This document shows, piece after piece, positions 1,134 to 24,321 of a stretch of 27,107 bases of DNA. Position 1 is the first letter of the stretch. Every line of letters starts with the position of its first letter. Source of the stretch: a virus; the IMG/VR virus record IMGVR_UViG_3300027762_000032, positions 1-27,107 of that record, one strand, 5' to 3'. The notes beneath the pieces were generated by a model. The model was not told the origin of the DNA, ran no database searches, and saw nothing but the letters and a program-made list of their open reading frames with translations. A program made the translations under genes and the position numbers.

Positions 1134-1284
1134 CATTGTAGCTTTTAGTAATCATATTTTCTTCATCTAAACTAATCAAAAGCCTTAAATATTCACTTGT
1201 ATTCAGTCCAAGTATACTTGCTTGTTTTTCTGCTTTATCTTTTAGTTCTTTTGATAATCTTATCATTATTGGTTTATTCACCAT
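1123..1284 (-). CDS. Small ribbon-helix-helix (Arc/CopG-like) DNA-binding protein
   Basis: 53 residues. The segment KPIMIRLSKELKDKAEKQAS followed by LGLNTSEYLRLLI fits an RHH fold: a basic beta strand (IMIRLS), then two helices separated by a turn. ATG 1284 is chosen because AAAGGAG lies 7-8 bases upstream; an upstream in-frame start would lie deep inside the ParB-like gene. Its first 11 bases overlap the end of that gene, so the two are translationally coupled. It is the last gene of the cassette. RHH proteins usually repress their own promoter, and a perfect inverted repeat sits in the cassette promoter at 3751-3772, which makes it the likely regulator (inference). Its 3' end lies in a 19-bp repeat. 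Confidence 0.75.
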   Translation of the reverse strand: MVNKPIMIRLSKELKDKAEKQASILGLNTSEYLRLLISLDEENMITKSYNVSK

Positions 1285-1801
1285 TTTGCAATCTCCTTTT
1301 TTCGTAATCTTCCCAACTTTTACTAAACTCAAAATTTGCAAACGCTTCCTTTAAACCTGTTATTTGTTTTAATCTTATTACTTCATCTAAATCCATACCA
1401 AGCTTTTTGCAAATAGATATATCTTCCCAACCTTGTTTCGTTAATTCAAGAACAATATCACTCATACTTCTTATTTTATGTGTTCCTCTTGCTCTATTAT
1501 GTCTTATTGTACTACCCATTCTTTCATCCAATGTTTTATCTATTACAACTATTGGTACTACATCACTTTTTAAATAATCTTTTAAAATTGTATATCTGTG
1601 GAAACCATCTACTACTATATAAACATCATTTTCTTTATCATAGTAACAAACTATTGGCATTGTTACACCATCTAATTCTATTGATAATTTTAACAATTTC
1701 ATTTCAGGTGTTGCAACTTTGTTTGGATTATAATCATTTGAAATAACCTTTTCAATTGGTACTAATTTAACTTCTAAACATGGAAATTTGATTTTTATCA
1801 T
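1274..1801 (-). CDS. ParB/Srx-fold N-terminal domain protein (IbrB-like)
   Basis: About 175 residues. The N-terminal half has the ParB/sulfiredoxin-type core: VPIEKVISNDYNPN, then a helix (MKLLKLSIELDG), then VVDGFHRYTIL, which stands where ParB proteins have GxxR/DGxHR. The C-terminal part (MSDIVLELTKQGW...ICKKLGMDLDEVIRL) looks like a small helix-turn-helix. There is no ParA in the window, so plasmid-style partition is unlikely. Instead it lies in an operon with a PAPS-reductase-like protein, the pairing seen in IbrA/IbrB of E. coli prophages. ATG 1801 has the better ribosome site (AAGGGTGAG); GTG 1810 is the alternative and overlaps the GNAT stop. Substrate unknown. Confidence 0.75.
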   Translation of the reverse strand: MIKIKFPCLEVKLVPIEKVISNDYNPNKVATPEMKLLKLSIELDGVTMPIVCYYDKENDVYIVVDGFHRYTILKDYLKSDVVPIVVIDKTLDERMGSTIRHNRARGTHKIRSMSDIVLELTKQGWEDISICKKLGMDLDEVIRLKQITGLKEAFANFEFSKSWEDYEKRRLQNGE

Positions 1802-1802
1802 A

Positions 1803-2207
1803 TTACTCACCCTTTCTCAAATAAAAGTATCTTCCATTTTGACGATATACTTCAAATCCTTTTTCAAACCAATACTTTTTTAAGTATTCTTCTTTTGTAA
1901 TTACCTCAATTGATTTATTTTTTTCTTCTGCATATCTTAACCTTTCTTCATTTATTTGTTTCCAAACACCTTTTTGTCTGTATTCATCTTCTACATAAGA
2001 TGATTCAAATACTATTTTATTTTTTAATTCATTTAATGAACCAAAACCAACTAACTTATTTGATTCATATACTAAAAACCATATATTTGTTTCTTTATTA
2101 CTCATATAAGGCATTATTTTTTTGTACTGTGGCTCTGCAAAATATTTACCCATAATAGAATAAAATTTTTTCTTATCGTAGTTACCACAAAACATTTTAA
2201 CTTCCAT
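1803..2207 (-). CDS. GNAT-family N-acetyltransferase
   Basis: 134 residues, the usual length of a single GNAT domain. LVGFGSLNELKNKIVFESSYV forms the central strands, followed by the acetyl-CoA pyrophosphate loop in VEDEYRQKGVWKQINEERL (an R/Q-x-x-G-x type motif) and the late strand/helix YLKKYWFEKGFEVYRQ. ATG 2207 is preceded by GGGGAG and overlaps the end of the PAPS-like gene by 11 bases, the same overlap length as between the ParB-like and RHH genes. The substrate cannot be read from the sequence. Its position between the IbrA-like and IbrB-like genes suggests that it acts with them, on a protein or small molecule. Confidence 0.8.
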   Translation of the reverse strand: MEVKMFCGNYDKKKFYSIMGKYFAEPQYKKIMPYMSNKETNIWFLVYESNKLVGFGSLNELKNKIVFESSYVEDEYRQKGVWKQINEERLRYAEEKNKSIEVITKEEYLKKYWFEKGFEVYRQNGRYFYLRKGE

Positions 2208-3483
2208 TTAATTCTCCCCTTTCCCATCTTTCTAAATCTTTATCATAATCACCATCACCAAGTATTTTTTTGTATTTTTCTTTTAGTAAATTTAACTTTT
2301 CGACATCTTTTTTTGTAGATGAAAAACTTAACCTTTTCATCCAAAAATCATTTTTTTCTAATGATCTTGCTATTCTTCTCCATGTTGGTTTTTTCCTGTC
2401 TGCTTCAACACCACTTTCATCAATATAGTCTTTATAATTTTCAACTTTTTGACCTCTTTTTTCTTCCCACCACTTCATAAATGTTTTTATCTTATTATAA
2501 TAATGTTCTTCTAATTCAGGAGCATATAGTCTAATACTTTCTAATAAATAAATCGTGTATTGTTCCCATGTCATATGTTCAGGCTTTTCTGATTTTATAT
2601 TTCCTAAAAGTGAAGTTCTTGCATATATGTTACCAAAGTTTACTCCTTGAACTCTATTTAAAACCTTTTCCCATGTTTCAGGTTCTAGTGATTTAAATTG
2701 GTCCAATCCGTTCCTTTGGTCATCACCATAAGGTTGGCATAATCTAGCTTCATGTATTGATAATCCATTTTTATACATCAATTCGTAAATTTCATTAAAG
2801 CTAAAATTTAATTTAAAAACAGCAGTCCATATATCTTCTGTCCTCCAATCATAAAGAGGAAAAAAATTATATACATCTATTGGTTTATTATTTATTTTAA
2901 CTTGTGTAGTCCAACCTTTTTCTTTATATCTGATTTTTGTGTCATTTATTATAGTTGTAAATCTGTTTAAACTTTCATCAGACCTTATACCTATTCCTGT
3001 TGCAATAGTTGAAGTGTGTTTTTTTGAATACCAATCAGCAAATTTAATTATAAATTCTTCAAATTCCATACCACATTTAAACCAATCAAAAGGACAATTT
3101 GATTCATTTATAACATCATCAGGCATATCTCTAACCCATTTTTCTTTATCTTTTTCATCCCAACATATCCACTTTGGTTGTAATATACTTACTGCATTTC
3201 TTAATGATATTGGCAAACAAATATGATAAAAATTATTTATACATTCTAACTTTTTTATTTCTTCTATATGTTCAATTGTGGCTTTGTATTGTGCTTCTAA
3301 ATCTATATATAAAATATCAAATATTTTGTTTTTAGATTTTGCTATATTATTTGCTAATTGAATCATAACAGAACTATCTTTGCCACCTGATACACTAAAA
3401 TAGATATGTTCAAATTCATCAAATATAAAATTTAGTCTTTCAATTGATGATTGTAATACATTTTTGTTGTTATAAATTTTCAT
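2197..3483 (-). CDS. PAPS reductase/sulfotransferase-like ATP pyrophosphatase (IbrA-like, DUF3440-type)
   Basis: 428 residues from ATG 3483. The PP-loop SGGKDSS lies at 32-38 and binds the ATP pyrophosphate in adenylating N-type ATP pyrophosphatases. It is followed by DLEAQY at the second strand and GIGIRSDESLNR in the middle, typical of PAPS-reductase relatives. The C-terminal region (ARLCQPYGDDQRNGLDQF, then GNIYA) matches the DUF3440-type tail of IbrA rather than assimilatory CysH. Relatives include DndC of DNA phosphorothioation, so sulfur or adenylate transfer to a macromolecule is possible but unproven. The start overlaps the preceding small gene by 14 bases; ATG 3489 is an alternative. 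The family call is firm, the reaction unknown. Confidence 0.85.
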   Translation of the reverse strand: MKIYNNKNVLQSSIERLNFIFDEFEHIYFSVSGGKDSSVMIQLANNIAKSKNKIFDILYIDLEAQYKATIEHIEEIKKLECINNFYHICLPISLRNAVSILQPKWICWDEKDKEKWVRDMPDDVINESNCPFDWFKCGMEFEEFIIKFADWYSKKHTSTIATGIGIRSDESLNRFTTIINDTKIRYKEKGWTTQVKINNKPIDVYNFFPLYDWRTEDIWTAVFKLNFSFNEIYELMYKNGLSIHEARLCQPYGDDQRNGLDQFKSLEPETWEKVLNRVQGVNFGNIYARTSLLGNIKSEKPEHMTWEQYTIYLLESIRLYAPELEEHYYNKIKTFMKWWEEKRGQKVENYKDYIDESGVEADRKKPTWRRIARSLEKNDFWMKRLSFSSTKKDVEKLNLLKEKYKKILGDGDYDKDLERWERGELNGS

Positions 3484-3709
3484 TGCCATCAATCCAATCT
3501 TTTATTTTATCATAGTCTTTATCTTTCGTTTTTTCTAACCATGATTTAAAACTATCTACTAGCCTTTCTTTTCTATCCAAACATTTTAACATTCTTGAAT
3601 CTAAACTGTCATATGCATATAAATCAATTATATGTACATTTTTATTTTGACCAATTATATTTACTCTACCTTCGTGACCACAACTATAAGTTCCGTAATA
3701 CCATGCCAT
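3470..3709 (-). CDS. Small conserved phage-type protein with N-terminal Cys/His segment
   Basis: 79 residues from ATG 3709, which has GGAGG eight bases upstream; a TTG five codons earlier overlaps that ribosome site and is unlikely. It begins MAWYYGTYSCGHEGRVNIIG, a pattern familiar from small phage proteins that end with CPEC-type cysteines. Here the later cysteine pair is missing and the tail is acidic and charged, so it may be a diverged version that cannot form a full zinc site. First gene of the cassette, directly behind its promoter. Function unknown. Confidence 0.65.
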   Translation of the reverse strand: MAWYYGTYSCGHEGRVNIIGQNKNVHIIDLYAYDSLDSRMLKCLDRKERLVDSFKSWLEKTKDKDYDKIKDWIDGNENL

Positions 3710-3742: not shown

Positions 3743-3778
3743 TAATATAATTGTATATCATTTGATATACAATGTCAA
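3743..3778 (-). promoter_or_regulatory. Cassette promoter with perfect inverted-repeat operator
   Basis: On the minus strand TTGACA (3778-3773), a 17-base spacer and TACAAT (3755-3750) give a near-consensus housekeeping promoter, with transcription expected from about 3743, 34 bases before the first ATG. The spacer and -10 are covered by a perfect inverted repeat: TTGTATATCA (3751-3760), two bases, TGATATACAA (3763-3772). A dimeric repressor bound there would block the promoter. The RHH protein at the end of the operon is the obvious candidate. Confidence 0.8.
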
Positions 3779-3799
3779 TATAAAACTTTAACTTTGATT

Positions 3800-3818
3800 T
3801 GGACACGCTATTTGGACA
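3800..3818. repeat. 19-bp direct repeat, copy 2 (right boundary of the PAPS/ParB cassette)
   Basis: Identical to 1115-1133. It lies 22 bases upstream of the cassette -35 box. The two copies bracket the five-gene cassette and its promoter, about 2.7 kb. They could be recombination scars or two operators for the same regulator. Confidence 0.85.
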
Positions 3819-3879
3819 TTTATGTTATAATATATTTGCATATTATGATTGAATATTGAAAGCAAAAATGATTCACACA

Positions 3880-3905
3880 AAAATGGGCTTATGCCTTTTT
3901 TTTGT
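3880..3905. terminator. Probable bidirectional terminator
   Basis: GGC-TTAT-GCC is flanked by A-runs on the left and nine T on the right, so it can act on the plus strand and more weakly on the minus strand (TTTTTG after the hairpin). It separates the small-gene operon ending at 3949 from the cassette promoter. Confidence 0.45.
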
Positions 3906-3948
3906 TTAACCCTGTTTACTTCATCATAAATATAATTTTTAAGATATT

Positions 3949-6485: not shown

Positions 6486-6532
6486 TTTGATACACCCCTT
6501 TTAATTTTTGTTTTTTCACTCCATTATGATGT

Positions 6533-6891
6533 AATCGTTTAATTTGGTTCATTCTCCATATTTTTTAAGTCAAAATCTTTGGTTCAATCCACCTACTTAT
6601 AAATCAAATACTGTGGTTCATTCTTTGATATTGAAAATCCCTAAATTTGGTTCATTCTATATCCTTTTTATCTTTTCCCGTGGTTCATTCATGTTTATAA
6701 TATTTATTACACTTTGTTCATTCATATGTATCTTAGTCACTTAATACGGTTCACTCATAGTCCTTTTGATTCTCATAATATGTTTCATTCTTGTAATATT
6801 AGTGTCCTTATTCTTAATTCATTTATCTCCTATTAATTCAATATCTTTAATTCATTCTCTATTAATAATCTTCGTTTGGTATGATTCATTC
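6533..6891. repeat. Repeat array A: 11 copies of the GGTTCATTC box at ~33.7-bp period
   Basis: Boxes begin at 6546, 6581, 6615, 6649, 6682, 6715, 6748, 6782, 6816, 6849 and 6883. Four are exact; the rest differ by one to three bases. Ten of the eleven have TC exactly nine bases before the box. The last box overlaps the stop of the sigma-like gene, and the array fills the whole 404-base gap to the thermonuclease gene. No coding frame survives because the steps alternate between 33, 34 and 35. Copies nearest the sigma-like gene are the most degenerate. Confidence 0.95.
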
Positions 6892-7573
6892 ACTTTTTAA
6901 AATAGTCACCTATAATACTCCACTCATTGAAATCTTCATTTTTTCTGTCTTCCTGGACATAATCACTTAACAGTCCAGTAAGTTTTTTTAAGGCACATTG
7001 CTTTATAAAGCTGACATTGCTAATTTTCATTTTGTTCTTATCTGCAATTTCTTTTATTGATAAATTCTCAATACAGCTTTCAACAATTACTGTTAATTCA
7101 ATCGGTGTAAGTTCATTTATTGCATTTTCAAAGTCCATTTTTGACACATATTTATTAATATCTATTTTTTTATCTTCAAGAAAAATTGCAAATGTGTCAG
7201 TTTCTTCATTTATAGTTTTGTCGTATGAAAATACACCCTTTCTTTTTTTGTAATCTTTTTGCATGTAGTACATTAATTTATATTTAATGTTGATGTATAA
7301 ATAAGTTGTAAATGTTTCATAGGTTTCTTTATTCAATTTATTTAGTGTTTTTATAACTATTTCAATTCCACAACTTATTAAATCATCAAGCTGATCTGGG
7401 TAATGGTATATGTGTTTTCTAGCTATATATATAATCAGGTACACGCTCCTGGCCACAAATTCATCTTTAGCCTGTTGGTCACCTGCTAGGATTTTGTCAT
7501 AATAGGGTATAAGTTCATCTTTTTGCAATGAAGTAAGTCCATTTTCTTTTAATGTTCTAATTAATTCTGTCAT
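6890..7573 (-). CDS. Sigma-70-family-like factor
   Basis: 227 residues. Region 2-like helix: YPDQLDDLISCGIEIVIKTL at ~58-77, preceded by ARSVYLIIYIARKHI. Region 4-like HTH: INELTPIELTVIVESCIENL, then SIKEIADKNKMKISNVSFIK at ~155-193. This is the architecture of short sigma factors and of phage sigma-like regulators. ATG 7573 has GAGG seven bases upstream. The gene sits between repeat arrays A and B; the array boxes touch its stop codon and come close to its ribosome site. It may redirect host RNA polymerase to phage promoters; whether it recognises the boxes is untested. Confidence 0.75.
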   Translation of the reverse strand: MTELIRTLKENGLTSLQKDELIPYYDKILAGDQQAKDEFVARSVYLIIYIARKHIYHYPDQLDDLISCGIEIVIKTLNKLNKETYETFTTYLYINIKYKLMYYMQKDYKKRKGVFSYDKTINEETDTFAIFLEDKKIDINKYVSKMDFENAINELTPIELTVIVESCIENLSIKEIADKNKMKISNVSFIKQCALKKLTGLLSDYVQEDRKNEDFNEWSIIGDYFKK

Positions 7574-7600
7574 GAAAATACCTCGCTCATAAATTTCTGT

Positions 7601-8497
7601 AATCTGTAAACTTGGCTCATTCCAACATAATTAAATTCTTTTTGTTTGTTTCATTTAATTGTTATGGCCGTCACAATATTTGGTTCAATCTTTCTTTTTT
7701 TTAAATCACATAGGATGGTTCATTCTTTTGTTTTTTATTCATCTTAATTGGTTCTATCCCTACTATTACGTAAATCATTAATTATGAATCATTCGCAGTA
7801 TTTATTAATCTTCCTCATTAATTCAATCTAATATAATTTAGTCATAGGCCTAGATTCATTCGTATGCCCTTTTGTTTCATCATCCTTGGTTCAATCGATA
7901 TATAATTACTCCCACATCATGGCTCATTCATCGGCTATTTAATCTGAATAGTTGATTCATTCTGTAATTATTAAATCTTTTGCAGTGGTTCATTCCTTCC
8001 CGCTTCAAATCATATTCCTTGGTTCAATCTTAAATATTAACAATCTTGCACCTGTGGTTCATTCGCTCAATTTGTTTTCAATTTCTTTGGTTCAATCCTT
8101 TTATATTTTTTCAATTACATTGGTTCATTCCTATACTATTTTCTTCAGTGGCTTCGGCTCATTCAATCTTCTTTAAATCCCATGATCTGGTTCATTCAAT
8201 TCCTATTTTTTCAATTACATTGGTTCATTCAAGTGTCGTGTTTATCTTTTGCCCTGGTTCATTCAGACATATTTACATCTCGCATCATGATTCATTCATG
8301 CTTTTTGCTTTTCAATTTTCATGGTTCATTCCATTATTTTTTAATCTTTGACTATGGTTCATTCTAATTACGTTTGAATCCAACCTTCTGATTCAATCCT
8401 TTTATTTTTATTCACTTTAAGTGGTTCATTCCAGATTCATAATTTCATGGTTTATGGTTCATTCACATTTCCTTATCTCATGTGATTTGATTCATTT
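7601..8497. repeat. Repeat array B: 27 copies of the GGTTCATTC box at ~33.7-bp period
   Basis: Boxes begin at 7614, 7648, 7682, 7717, 7750, 7786, 7820, 7853, 7888, 7921, 7954, 7987, 8021, 8056, 8089, 8122, 8156, 8189, 8222, 8256, 8289, 8323, 8356, 8390, 8423, 8456 and 8489. Eleven are exact GGTTCATTC and four are GGTTCAATC. Twenty-six have TC exactly nine bases before the box; 8056 has ten. Steps are 33-36. The last box overlaps the stop codon of the Transposase_20-domain gene, so the array fills the whole ~900-base gap. Bases 8104-8130 and 8204-8230 are identical, evidence of internal duplication by three units. Confidence 0.97.
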
Positions 8498-9362
8498 ATA
8501 CTACTTTTTTCATAAATTCATTAGCTTTTTTGAACACGTCATAAAACCAACCTTTTTCAACAGGTTCTTTAATTAATTCTGGCCTTTCTATCTTATGAAC
8601 ATGCCCTAAATGTGCTATGACATAAGGTGCTGGGGCAGGTTTTTTGTAATGCCATTCATACCAATATTCATGTAAGTGTGACAAAAACATTTTCACTGCA
8701 AATCTAGCAGCTCTTGCATTGATGTGTGCAGGTGGAAGCTTGCCAATACTGTAGTATTTATATGCTTCTGTATTCTTGCCCACTTGACTTTTTCTCACTT
8801 CTGCCAAATCTTTAAATGCTAATAGTTCATTTTGTTCAGTTTCCCATTCCTTTCTTTCCCTATACAACCGACCATAAAAGCTGTTTTCTTTATTGCTGTT
8901 TTTTATAAAACCTTGTCCAGCTTGCCAACAAATAGTCTTAAGCCTTGCATTCCATGGCCTTCTTTGTCCTTTTTCCCACTTAATGCTACTAACTAATCCA
9001 GCAAAGCTGTAAATGTGTCCTACTGTTGGTGCTTTTTCTATGTCTATGTGTGCCAACAAAGCTGCACTTACAACTGGTCCAATTCCTAACTGTTGATTCA
9101 TCCATTGGCCAACTGGATGATTAAGTGTGTAGTATTGCAAAATCTTTTTTATTTCTTTTTCAACTACATCAAATTGGCTTTCGTACCAGTTGAATAGTTC
9201 ATGTGGTTCTTTAGTTTTTGACATCATGTTTCTTTGGTTCCCTGACCTTACCCTTTGCTGTTGGATGGTGTAATAGTTATCAATAATCAGCCTTAATTCA
9301 TCTACATCAAGTGTTAGTGCTGCTTTTTTTATGTCTTTACTTAGCCTTTCAACAGTTTCCAT
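8496..9362 (-). CDS. Transposase_20 (IS110 C-terminal)-domain protein without RuvC domain
   Basis: 288 residues. The first ~85 are helical and charged, like the coiled-coil linker of IS110 transposases. GIGPVVSAALLAHI (93-106) and YSFAGLVSS (118-126) are the helix-hairpin-helix and following segment of Transposase_20; RRPWNARLKTICWQAG aligns with its next helix. The N-terminal DEDD RuvC-like domain is absent. Where IS110 enzymes have the catalytic serine (typically SSGG or SG after AGLVP), this protein reads IKWEKG, so the serine appears lost. No element ends flank it, so it is a phage gene rather than an insertion sequence, perhaps kept for DNA or RNA binding. ATG 9362 follows GGGGGG. It lies immediately upstream of array B in the direction of transcription. 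Confidence 0.75.
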   Translation of the reverse strand: METVERLSKDIKKAALTLDVDELRLIIDNYYTIQQQRVRSGNQRNMMSKTKEPHELFNWYESQFDVVEKEIKKILQYYTLNHPVGQWMNQQLGIGPVVSAALLAHIDIEKAPTVGHIYSFAGLVSSIKWEKGQRRPWNARLKTICWQAGQGFIKNSNKENSFYGRLYRERKEWETEQNELLAFKDLAEVRKSQVGKNTEAYKYYSIGKLPPAHINARAARFAVKMFLSHLHEYWYEWHYKKPAPAPYVIAHLGHVHKIERPELIKEPVEKGWFYDVFKKANEFMKKVV

Positions 9363-12989: not shown

Positions 12990-13083
12990 GTGTTAGGGGC
13001 AATTGCCCCTAACTATCCATGCCTTGCAATGCCGAGCCGCGCCTTGCCGTGCCTTGCCTCGCCTCGCCTAGCCTCGAAAATTT
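12990..13083. repeat. Intergenic GCCNN-pentamer module, copy 1
   Basis: Eleven pentamers in strict register (13021-13075), nearly all GCCNN (for example GCCTT, GCCGC, GCCTC), end in GAAAATTTAT at the preceding gene's stop. A 9-bp hairpin GTTAGGGGC/GCCCCTAAC (12992-13000 with 13005-13013) adjoins them. Order on the mRNA: stop, AAATTTTC, (NNGGC)n, hairpin, ribosome site, next ATG. Far richer in GC than its surroundings. Confidence 0.9.
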
Positions 13084-23091: not shown

Positions 23092-24321
23092 CTATATTGT
23101 AGAAGCTACTAGATTACGTTTTGCTACTATCATATCAGTTTTTGAAGCCCAACTATCGCCAGTTTGGTCATATTCATCACAATCCGCATAATTACTACTA
23201 ACATATCCACCATAAACATACCCTTTCGCGTTAACTGTAGAAGCTGCTAAAATATATCTTGTGGGGTCTGGCATGTCAGTTTTCGAACTCCAACTATCAC
23301 TGCTTGCAGTATACTCATCACAATCTTTATAAGCCGTAGTACCTGACTGAAATCCAGCATAAACATACCCTTTAGAATTTATAGTAGAAGCAGCTAAATT
23401 TCTTCTAGTTGGGTCTGGTCCATCAGTTTTTGAAGCCCAGCTATTACTAATAGAATTATATTCAAACATTGTTTTTCTTCTCAACCCTGAATCCCAACCA
23501 TAAGCCAAATAGCCTTTGTCATCTATTGTAATTACTCCTGATTGCATTCTAGTATCTGAAACGTTAGTTTTTGAAGCCCAACTATTTCCCGTTTGGTCGT
23601 ATTCATCGTTATCATTAATATACCCACCATCAAAACCTCCAAAAATGTACCCCTTCTCTAAAATTGTTGTCCCGTTTGCACTATTCCTTGCGGGGTCTGG
23701 CATGTCAGTTTTCGAACTCCAACTATTACTGCTTGCAGTATACTCATCACAATCTTTTAATCGACTGGCATCATTTCCACAATAAATATATCCTTTAGAA
23801 CCTATTGTAGAAGCAGTTAAATCATTCCTTGCGGGGTCTGGCATGTCAGTTTTCGAACTCCAACTATCACCTGTTTGATTGTATTCATCTGTTTCTTTTA
23901 AATATTGGTTAGAAAAACCACCATATACATATGCAAATGCTGATGGTGCCTCATAAGTTGACTTTATCTGAAAACTAGCCTCATTCTCCCCACCTGCACG
24001 CTTGGTAATACTTAACGACCCAGCCCTTAAATATTCAGTCCTATCAATAAAACTATAAAGCCTTATTGTGTCCCCTTCTGTCATGCCTGTTATATCTGCC
24101 CCAACCACTTCAAGGGTATTAACATCAGTAAAAGTTACCTTCCTACCACCTCTTTCAGCGCTTGACTGTGACGTTGCCCGCCTAGTAGTGTTGACTATAA
24201 AGTCACCGCCACCAAGCCCATGTGCAGTTATTTTTATTGTATTGCCATCAGTCCCCGCTTCTGCTGTTGCTTCCCTTTGGAACTCTAATATTTGAAGTAT
24301 ACAATTATACGAATCAGCCAT
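23092..24321 (-). CDS. Kelch-like beta-propeller tail protein (six repeats)
   Basis: 409 residues. Residues 1-~135 look like the first domain of a tail hub protein (RTEYLRAGSLSITKRAGGEN). Residues ~135-409 hold six ~45-48-residue kelch-like units: GYVYGG-type strand, ..DCDEYD.T.., DSWSSKTDMPDP.R, then LAASTI.S. Six units would close a six-bladed propeller; the last ends with the protein. The repeats are also very similar as DNA (the GTCTGGCATGTCAGTTTTCG stretch recurs at about 23267, 23694 and 23838), so they expanded recently. Probable role: receptor or glycan binding at the tail tip. ATG 24321 has AAGGTGG upstream. Confidence 0.75.
   Translation of the reverse strand: MADSYNCILQILEFQREATAEAGTDGNTIKITAHGLGGGDFIVNTTRRATSQSSAERGGRKVTFTDVNTLEVVGADITGMTEGDTIRLYSFIDRTEYLRAGSLSITKRAGGENEASFQIKSTYEAPSAFAYVYGGFSNQYLKETDEYNQTGDSWSSKTDMPDPARNDLTASTIGSKGYIYCGNDASRLKDCDEYTASSNSWSSKTDMPDPARNSANGTTILEKGYIFGGFDGGYINDNDEYDQTGNSWASKTNVSDTRMQSGVITIDDKGYLAYGWDSGLRRKTMFEYNSISNSWASKTDGPDPTRRNLAASTINSKGYVYAGFQSGTTAYKDCDEYTASSDSWSSKTDMPDPTRYILAASTVNAKGYVYGGYVSSNYADCDEYDQTGDSWASKTDMIVAKRNLVASTI

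What the first reader, a model, noticed from the sequence alone, without database searches (positions are those of the whole stretch)
8496..9362. Transposase_20-domain protein lacking RuvC domain and catalytic serine, next to the array
IS110-family recombinases need an N-terminal DEDD domain and a serine in the C-terminal domain, and are guided by a noncoding RNA from the element's own flanks. Here only the C-terminal domain and linker remain, the serine position reads IKWEKG, and ~900 bases of structured noncoding repeat start at the stop codon. A domesticated protein that binds the array or its transcript is an attractive hypothesis. No function is known for such stand-alone domains.
Basis: partly seen in the sequence, partly recalled or inferred. 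Interest (0 to 1): 0.8.

Follow-up and report, generated by a model that had tools for sequence, protein, structure and literature searches.

The report
Phage TIGR-TasA RNA-guided DNA-binding system
The gene is not a broken transposase: it is TasA, the nuclease-free protein of the recently described phage RNA-guided TIGR-Tas system, and the repeats beside it are the arrays that encode its short two-part guide RNAs, so it is a new (slightly odd) member of a known but poorly understood kind.

Summary
ORF 8496-9362 (-) encodes an intact 288-aa stand-alone "Transposase_20" protein without a nuclease domain, with no serine at residues 127-134, and a periodic array starts at its stop codon. What it is: a TIGR-Tas system of the TasA type (Faure et al. 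2025, PMC12045711). The protein passes NCBI's TIGR-Tas equivalog model (186 bits, cut-off 100) and fails the IS110 one (19 vs 140). Its best PDB matches are TasR and TasH. The array is a TIGR dual-repeat array: edge GA[A/T]TGAACCA, 8-nt spacer A, loop GA...A, 8-nt spacer B, 27 units. A second array of 11 units, not in the finding, follows the next gene (a sigma-like factor). Of 80 viral relatives, 70 carry such arrays, always on the tas strand. The array RNA is not unusually structured, and the protein was not "domesticated" by losing parts. One true oddity: the loop repeats lack box C and vary from 7 to 10 nt, unlike all 77 comparison arrays. Guides do not match their own phage. One related prophage array has an exact tandem target in another prophage of its host, a lead only. 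Likely function: RNA-guided DNA binding without cleavage. Targets unknown.

The parts
8496..9362 (-). tasA: 288-aa solo Nop-type (Transposase_20-like) TIGR-associated protein, no nuclease domain
   Evidence: NCBIfam NF052498 TIGR_Tas_endo 7e-55, 186.3 bits vs cut-off 100; profile match to TasR 9mty 1.6e-20 and TasH 21kl 1.5e-13
7590..8497 (-). TIGR dual-repeat array 1, 27 units of 33-36 nt, from the tasA stop codon (which the first edge repeat, 8488-8497, overlaps) to the ribosome-binding site of the next gene
   Evidence: Edge consensus GA[A/T]TGAACCA; loop GA 8 nt after the edge in 25/26 units; A 9 nt before the next edge in 25/26; loop block information 4.99 bits vs 0.99 in shuffles, none of 2000 as high; units listed
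6890..7573 (-). sigma-70-like factor gene lying between the two arrays
   Evidence: TIGR02937 sigma70-ECF 3.3e-15; PHROG 351
6512..6891 (-). TIGR dual-repeat array 2, 11 units, same edge repeat, from the sigma-gene stop codon to the ribosome-binding site of the next gene
   Evidence: the first unit listed there, at 6925, is spurious: it lies in the sigma gene

Best explanation
This is a phage-borne TIGR-TasA system. tasA and two arrays appear to be transcribed together in the leftward replication operon (no terminator was seen). The arrays' RNA would be cut within the edge repeats into 38 short guide RNAs (tigRNAs), each with two 8-nt spacers. A TasA dimer would hold each tigRNA by the edge and loop repeats. 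Spacer A would pair with one DNA strand and spacer B with the other, at adjacent 8-nt sites, bending and unwinding the target. TasA has no nuclease, so the likely outcome is blocking of transcription or replication at the target, probably on a competing mobile element rather than on its own genome. Shown here: protein family, dual-repeat arrays, conservation of the pairing with arrays, no nuclease domain, no self-targets. Inferred from the published systems: processing, binding, tandem pairing. Guess: silencing of other elements.
For: NCBIfam TIGR-Tas equivalog well over cut-off, IS110 model far below. PDB best hits are TasR and TasH. Dual-repeat anatomy with strict 8-nt spacers and GA/A anchors. 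16-unit chain vs 3-4 in shuffles. 70 of 80 viral relatives have arrays, mostly 10+8+10+8 = 36 nt, none on the strand opposite to tas. Salicola phage CGphi29, the published SpTIGR-TasH locus, is recovered by homology, and its array is found by the same parser. No self-target beyond permuted spacer pairs in the window for array 1, nor among 763 units of 54 arrays.
Against: The window's loop repeats lack box C (penultimate C in 6 of 37 loops, against 73-100% in the 77 comparison arrays) and vary in length, so tigRNA loading may differ or be weaker. The protein is a long branch with several substitutions at near-invariant positions (G101A, W118Y, K147Q, S151G). Targets of the window's guides are not known.
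Confidence: 0.88

Rival explanations
1. A degenerate IS110-family transposase remnant that by chance lies beside repeats.
For: Only Pfam hit is Transposase_20; PHROG 4285 is labelled 'transposase'.
Against: Fails NCBIfam IS110 (19 vs 140 bits) and passes TIGR-Tas (186 vs 100); open frame with conserved solo architecture in 80 relatives at 46-56% identity; arrays in 70 of them.
Confidence: 0.02
2. A TIGR-TasA locus that is decaying: the loop repeats have lost box C and regular length, the protein has drifted, and the system no longer loads guides well.
For: Loops without box C and 7-10 nt long, unlike 77 comparison arrays; long branch and breaks at 11 near-invariant sites.
Against: Open frame with the other conserved residues kept; spacer A is exactly 8 nt in 25/26 units and the 8-nt spacer B anchor holds in 25/26; both arrays are long and share the edge repeat. 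Decay should blur spacing and edges too.
Confidence: 0.12
3. TasA and its guides regulate the phage's own genome (for example bend DNA for its integrase or control its own genes) instead of acting on other elements.
For: TasR bends target DNA nearly 180 degrees, and an aid to phage integrases was suggested by the discoverers (PMC12045711). The window phage encodes an integrase.
Against: Array-1 spacer pairs match the phage genome no better than permuted pairs (mean best 12.96 vs 12.95 of 16); no exact own-contig target for 763 units.
Confidence: 0.1

Closest known systems
TIGR-TasA (FpTIGR, Flavonifractor plautii; Faure et al. 2025, PMC12045711)
   Same: Solo Nop-type protein, no nuclease, dual-repeat array next to the gene, phage or mobile-element context
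   Different: 8-nt instead of 9-nt spacers, 33-34-nt units, loop repeats of uneven length without box C; 38 units in two arrays around a sigma-like gene, no terminator seen
TIGR-TasH of Salicola phage CGphi29 (SpTIGR; PDB 21kl and others)
   Same: Homologous C-terminal domain (24% identity); 16 nt of spacer per unit as here
   Different: TasH carries an HNH nuclease at the N-terminus; the window protein does not
TIGR-TasR (PDB 9mty)
   Same: Best solved-structure match by sequence profile (1.6e-20)
   Different: TasR has a RuvC nuclease; box D 'UG' and box C 'CCA' in both repeats, here 'GA' and only the edge has CCA
IS110-family recombinases (IS621, PDB 8wt6)
   Same: Shared domain containing the Transposase_20 motif (4.7e-05)
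   Different: No DEDD domain, no conserved serine seen, no element ends or bridge RNA; guide array instead
box C/D snoRNP Nop5/Nop56/58
   Same: Nop fold and box C/D-like guide anchors, by the published comparison
   Different: No fibrillarin partner, no K-turn; DNA rather than RNA target; not compared here

Membership tests
TIGR-Tas system | Nop-type Tas protein recognised by the family model | tested here: met
   NF052498 186.3 bits vs cut-off 100; TasR/TasH best PDB matches. The Nop fold itself was not modelled
TIGR-Tas system | Adjacent array of two alternating repeats with two short spacers | tested here: met
   Edge 10 nt, spacer A 8, loop 7-10, spacer B 8; 27 + 11 units
TIGR-Tas system | Box C and box D in both repeats, covarying ('almost always' in the source, so not a strict requirement) | tested here: inconclusive
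   GA (box D position) in both repeats; CCA-type box C in the edge only, loops end mostly AA. A departure from the usual pattern, which the source does not make a condition of membership
TIGR-Tas system | Array conserved beside homologues | tested here: met
   70 of 80 viral relatives, none on the opposite strand
TIGR-Tas system | Array transcribed and cut into ~36-nt tigRNAs bound by the protein | not testable with these tools
   needs RNA sequencing of a pull-down
TIGR-TasA subtype | No HNH or RuvC nuclease domain | tested here: met
   288 aa, Tas model covers 23-234; no other Pfam domain
TIGR-Tas system | Spacers A and B pair with opposite strands of one target | tested here: inconclusive
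   No target known for the window; none in its own genome for array 1. One exact tandem match for a related array
IS110-family recombinase | N-terminal DEDD (RuvC-like) domain | tested here: not met
   absent
IS110-family recombinase | Catalytic serine in the C-terminal domain | tested here: inconclusive
   No Ser at 127-134 and the family motif is WxKG, but no structural superposition was possible
IS110-family recombinase | Curated IS110 model | tested here: not met
   19 bits vs cut-off 140

The most novel reading that the evidence does not exclude
TasA guides silence rival prophages: a TIGR-TasA array carried by one prophage names a site in the early (lytic) operon of another prophage in the same cell. 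In addition, the window shows an asymmetric form of the guide whose loop repeat has dispensed with box C, so only one protomer of the TasA dimer would read a full box C/D pair.
Probability: 0.2. Interest if true: 0.75.

Novelty: new member of a known kind. Interest (0 to 1): 0.45.

Why it matters
TasA is the commonest TIGR effector, and its targets and purpose are open questions in the founding paper. This locus adds a low-GC phage with 38 guides in two arrays and an unusual loop repeat, which tests how much of the box C/D code is needed. The surroundings give two usable results: guides of this clade are not aimed at their own phage, and an isolate (Acidobacteriaceae KBS 96) offers a concrete, checkable candidate target in a co-resident prophage.

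Tried and rejected
Self-targets in the window: none above permuted pairs for the 27 array-1 units, in either orientation or as a contiguous match; array-2 units were tested only within. Self- and cross-targets of 763 units in 46 phage contigs (not all complete in hand): no excess (exact, other contigs: 3 real vs 2.5 expected). The three exact cross-hits were inspected: two in coding sequence, one in an intergenic gap of a related phage; not above chance. Host targets in Propionivibrio (L187): none in three patterns. IMG/VR scan for the KBS 96 target 16-mer: 33 contigs, no homologue of the target gene. Conserved neighbourhood: none of the window's other genes recurs beside tasA in relatives except one ERF-like hit. 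Close relatives by single-protein patterns: none. Plasmids: none. Rfam: none. PADLOC: no hit for TasA. A link to the published TasParB operon was considered and dropped: the ParB-like gene at 1274-1810 is several kb away beside a DUF3440 gene, not in an operon with tasA. Short-loop arrays as one lineage: the tree needs six changes, so not one clade, and the window's place is unresolved.

Full report
WHAT IS THERE. The window is a 27,107-base IMG/VR virus record, 32% G+C, with integrase, repressor-like, replication, terminase-associated and tail genes. ORF 8496-9362 on the minus strand is intact, 288 aa. Its only Pfam hit is a weak Transposase_20 match.

WHAT THE PROTEIN IS. NCBIfam names it directly: NF052498, TIGR-Tas system RNA-guided endonuclease, 7e-55, 186.3 bits against a cut-off of 100. 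The IS110 equivalog gives 19 bits against 140. Among solved structures the best matches are TasR (9mty) and TasH (21kl and seven more entries); IS621 is a distant third. tblastn against phages recovers Salicola phage CGphi29, which is the published SpTIGR-TasH locus (PMC12045711). The protein has no nuclease domain, so it is of the TasA (solo Nop) type; the word 'endonuclease' in the model name does not apply to it.

THE ARRAYS. Read on the tasA strand, the 'periodic repeat' resolves into two alternating repeats: edge GA[A/T]TGAACCA (10 nt), spacer A (8 nt), loop GA...A (7-10 nt), spacer B (8 nt). The loop's GA stands exactly 8 nt after the edge in 25 of 26 units, and an A stands 9 nt before the next edge in 25 of 26. 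The loop block carries 4.99 bits against a shuffled mean of 0.99, with 0 of 2000 shuffles as high. Unit lengths are 33 (14), 34 (8), 35 (3) and 36 (1). Array 1 (7590-8497) has 27 units counting the last one. It begins inside the tasA stop codon and ends just before the ribosome-binding site of the next gene. That gene (6890-7573) is a sigma-70-like factor. It is followed, again from its stop codon, by array 2 (6512-6891; 11 units; same edge), which ends before the ribosome-binding site of a nuclease-like gene. The first unit listed by the parser for array 2 (6925) is spurious. No terminator was found nearby, so the arrays seem to be intergenic parts of one operon. The RNA of array 1 does not fold better than shuffles (z = -0.26), so 'structured' is not supported.

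CONSERVATION. A profile scan found 326 viral relatives, of which 80 were kept, 46-56% identical. Seventy of the 80 have at least four parsed dual-repeat units. None lies on the strand opposite to tas; arrays are downstream only in 54 loci, upstream only in 10, both in 6 (this count includes L003). Several of the ten without parsed arrays are contigs cut close to the gene. The usual relative is 10+8+10+8 = 36 nt with edges such as GAGCGAGCCA and loops such as GAGAGAACCA. Twelve relatives were found in bacterial and archaeal genomes, one of them in an isolate, Acidobacteriaceae KBS 96. The WxKG motif at the serine region is near-invariant, so these proteins are a family of their own rather than broken IS110 enzymes.

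WHAT IS UNUSUAL HERE. In the window's loops the penultimate base is C in 4 of 26 (array 1) and 2 of 11 (array 2). In the 77 comparison arrays the fraction is 0.73 or more, median 1.0. The window loops also vary in length. The protein carries substitutions at positions otherwise nearly invariant (G101A, W118Y, K147Q, S151G) and sits on a long branch with no resolved sister. The published account says box motifs 'almost always covary' between edge and loop, so this is either an asymmetric variant or partial decay; the strict 8-nt spacings speak for function. I did not test whether the protein and RNA changes are causally linked.

TARGETS. From the published cleavage geometry (8-nt 3' overhangs) I inferred the target as spacer A followed, after 0-2 nt, by the reverse complement of spacer B. 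The 27 array-1 pairs match the window no better than permuted pairs (mean best 12.96 vs 12.95 of 16). For 763 units of 54 arrays in 45 phage contigs, exact own-contig matches were 0, and exact matches to other contigs were 3 against 2.5 expected from permuted pairs. So the guides are not aimed at their own phage or, in general, at these other carriers.

A LEAD OUTSIDE THE WINDOW. In KBS 96 I searched all six pairs of the prophage array (L186) against its 6.7-Mb genome at gap 0, up to one mismatch. One pair matched exactly (TAAAAGCAGAATCGAA, 6329962-6329977), one with a single mismatch, four not at all; the reversed-pattern controls gave none. By base composition an exact match is expected about 0.001-0.003 times for that pair, roughly 0.01-0.02 over six (my estimate). 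The exact site lies in another prophage with integrase, repressor-like, replication-initiation-like and terminase genes. It falls about ten codons into a small gene (7743-8003 of L203) just upstream of the replication gene and divergent from the repressor-like gene. Against it: other units do not match that prophage beyond controls, the same 16-mer occurs in 33 viral contigs without homology to the target gene, and three pairs of a second host gave nothing. It is a single, after-the-fact observation.

HOW IT LIKELY WORKS. By the published systems, the array RNA is cut in the edge repeats into short tigRNAs, a Tas dimer holds one tigRNA, and the two spacers pair with opposite strands of one site, with strong DNA bending. 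TasA has no nuclease, so blocking of transcription or replication is the likely effect. The first part is inferred from close homology (about 0.85), the blocking role is a guess (about 0.4).

Expression is untested. The host of the window phage is unknown.

Noticed in passing
window 6512-6891 (-): Second TIGR array of 11 units behind the sigma-like gene, not mentioned in the finding.
   Followed up: yes
window 6890-7573 (-): Sigma-70-like factor gene lying exactly between the two guide arrays; not found beside tasA in the 80 relatives.
   Followed up: partly
L203 7963-7978 (Acidobacteriaceae KBS 96, 6329962-6329977): Exact 16-nt tandem target of unit 2 of the prophage TIGR array in the same genome (L186), inside the early operon of another prophage.
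   Followed up: partly
L187 about 3750-3939 (Propionivibrio): Two units with near-identical spacers (GAAATAAC/CACTGGTA and GAAGTAAC/CACTGGTA), as if aimed at variants of one target; no match in that genome.
   Followed up: partly
window 1274-1810 and 2197-3492 (-): ParB-like gene and a DUF3440/PAPS-reductase-like gene with an acetyltransferase-like ORF between, resembling an IbrA/IbrB pair (from memory).
   Followed up: no
window 23092-24321 (-): Tail-region protein with kelch-like repeats (YGGF...DEY...SW) downstream of the tape measure gene.
   Followed up: no
window 13021-13068: Short tandem repeat of unusually high G+C (GCCTTGCCATGCCGAGCCGC) in a low-G+C phage.
   Followed up: no
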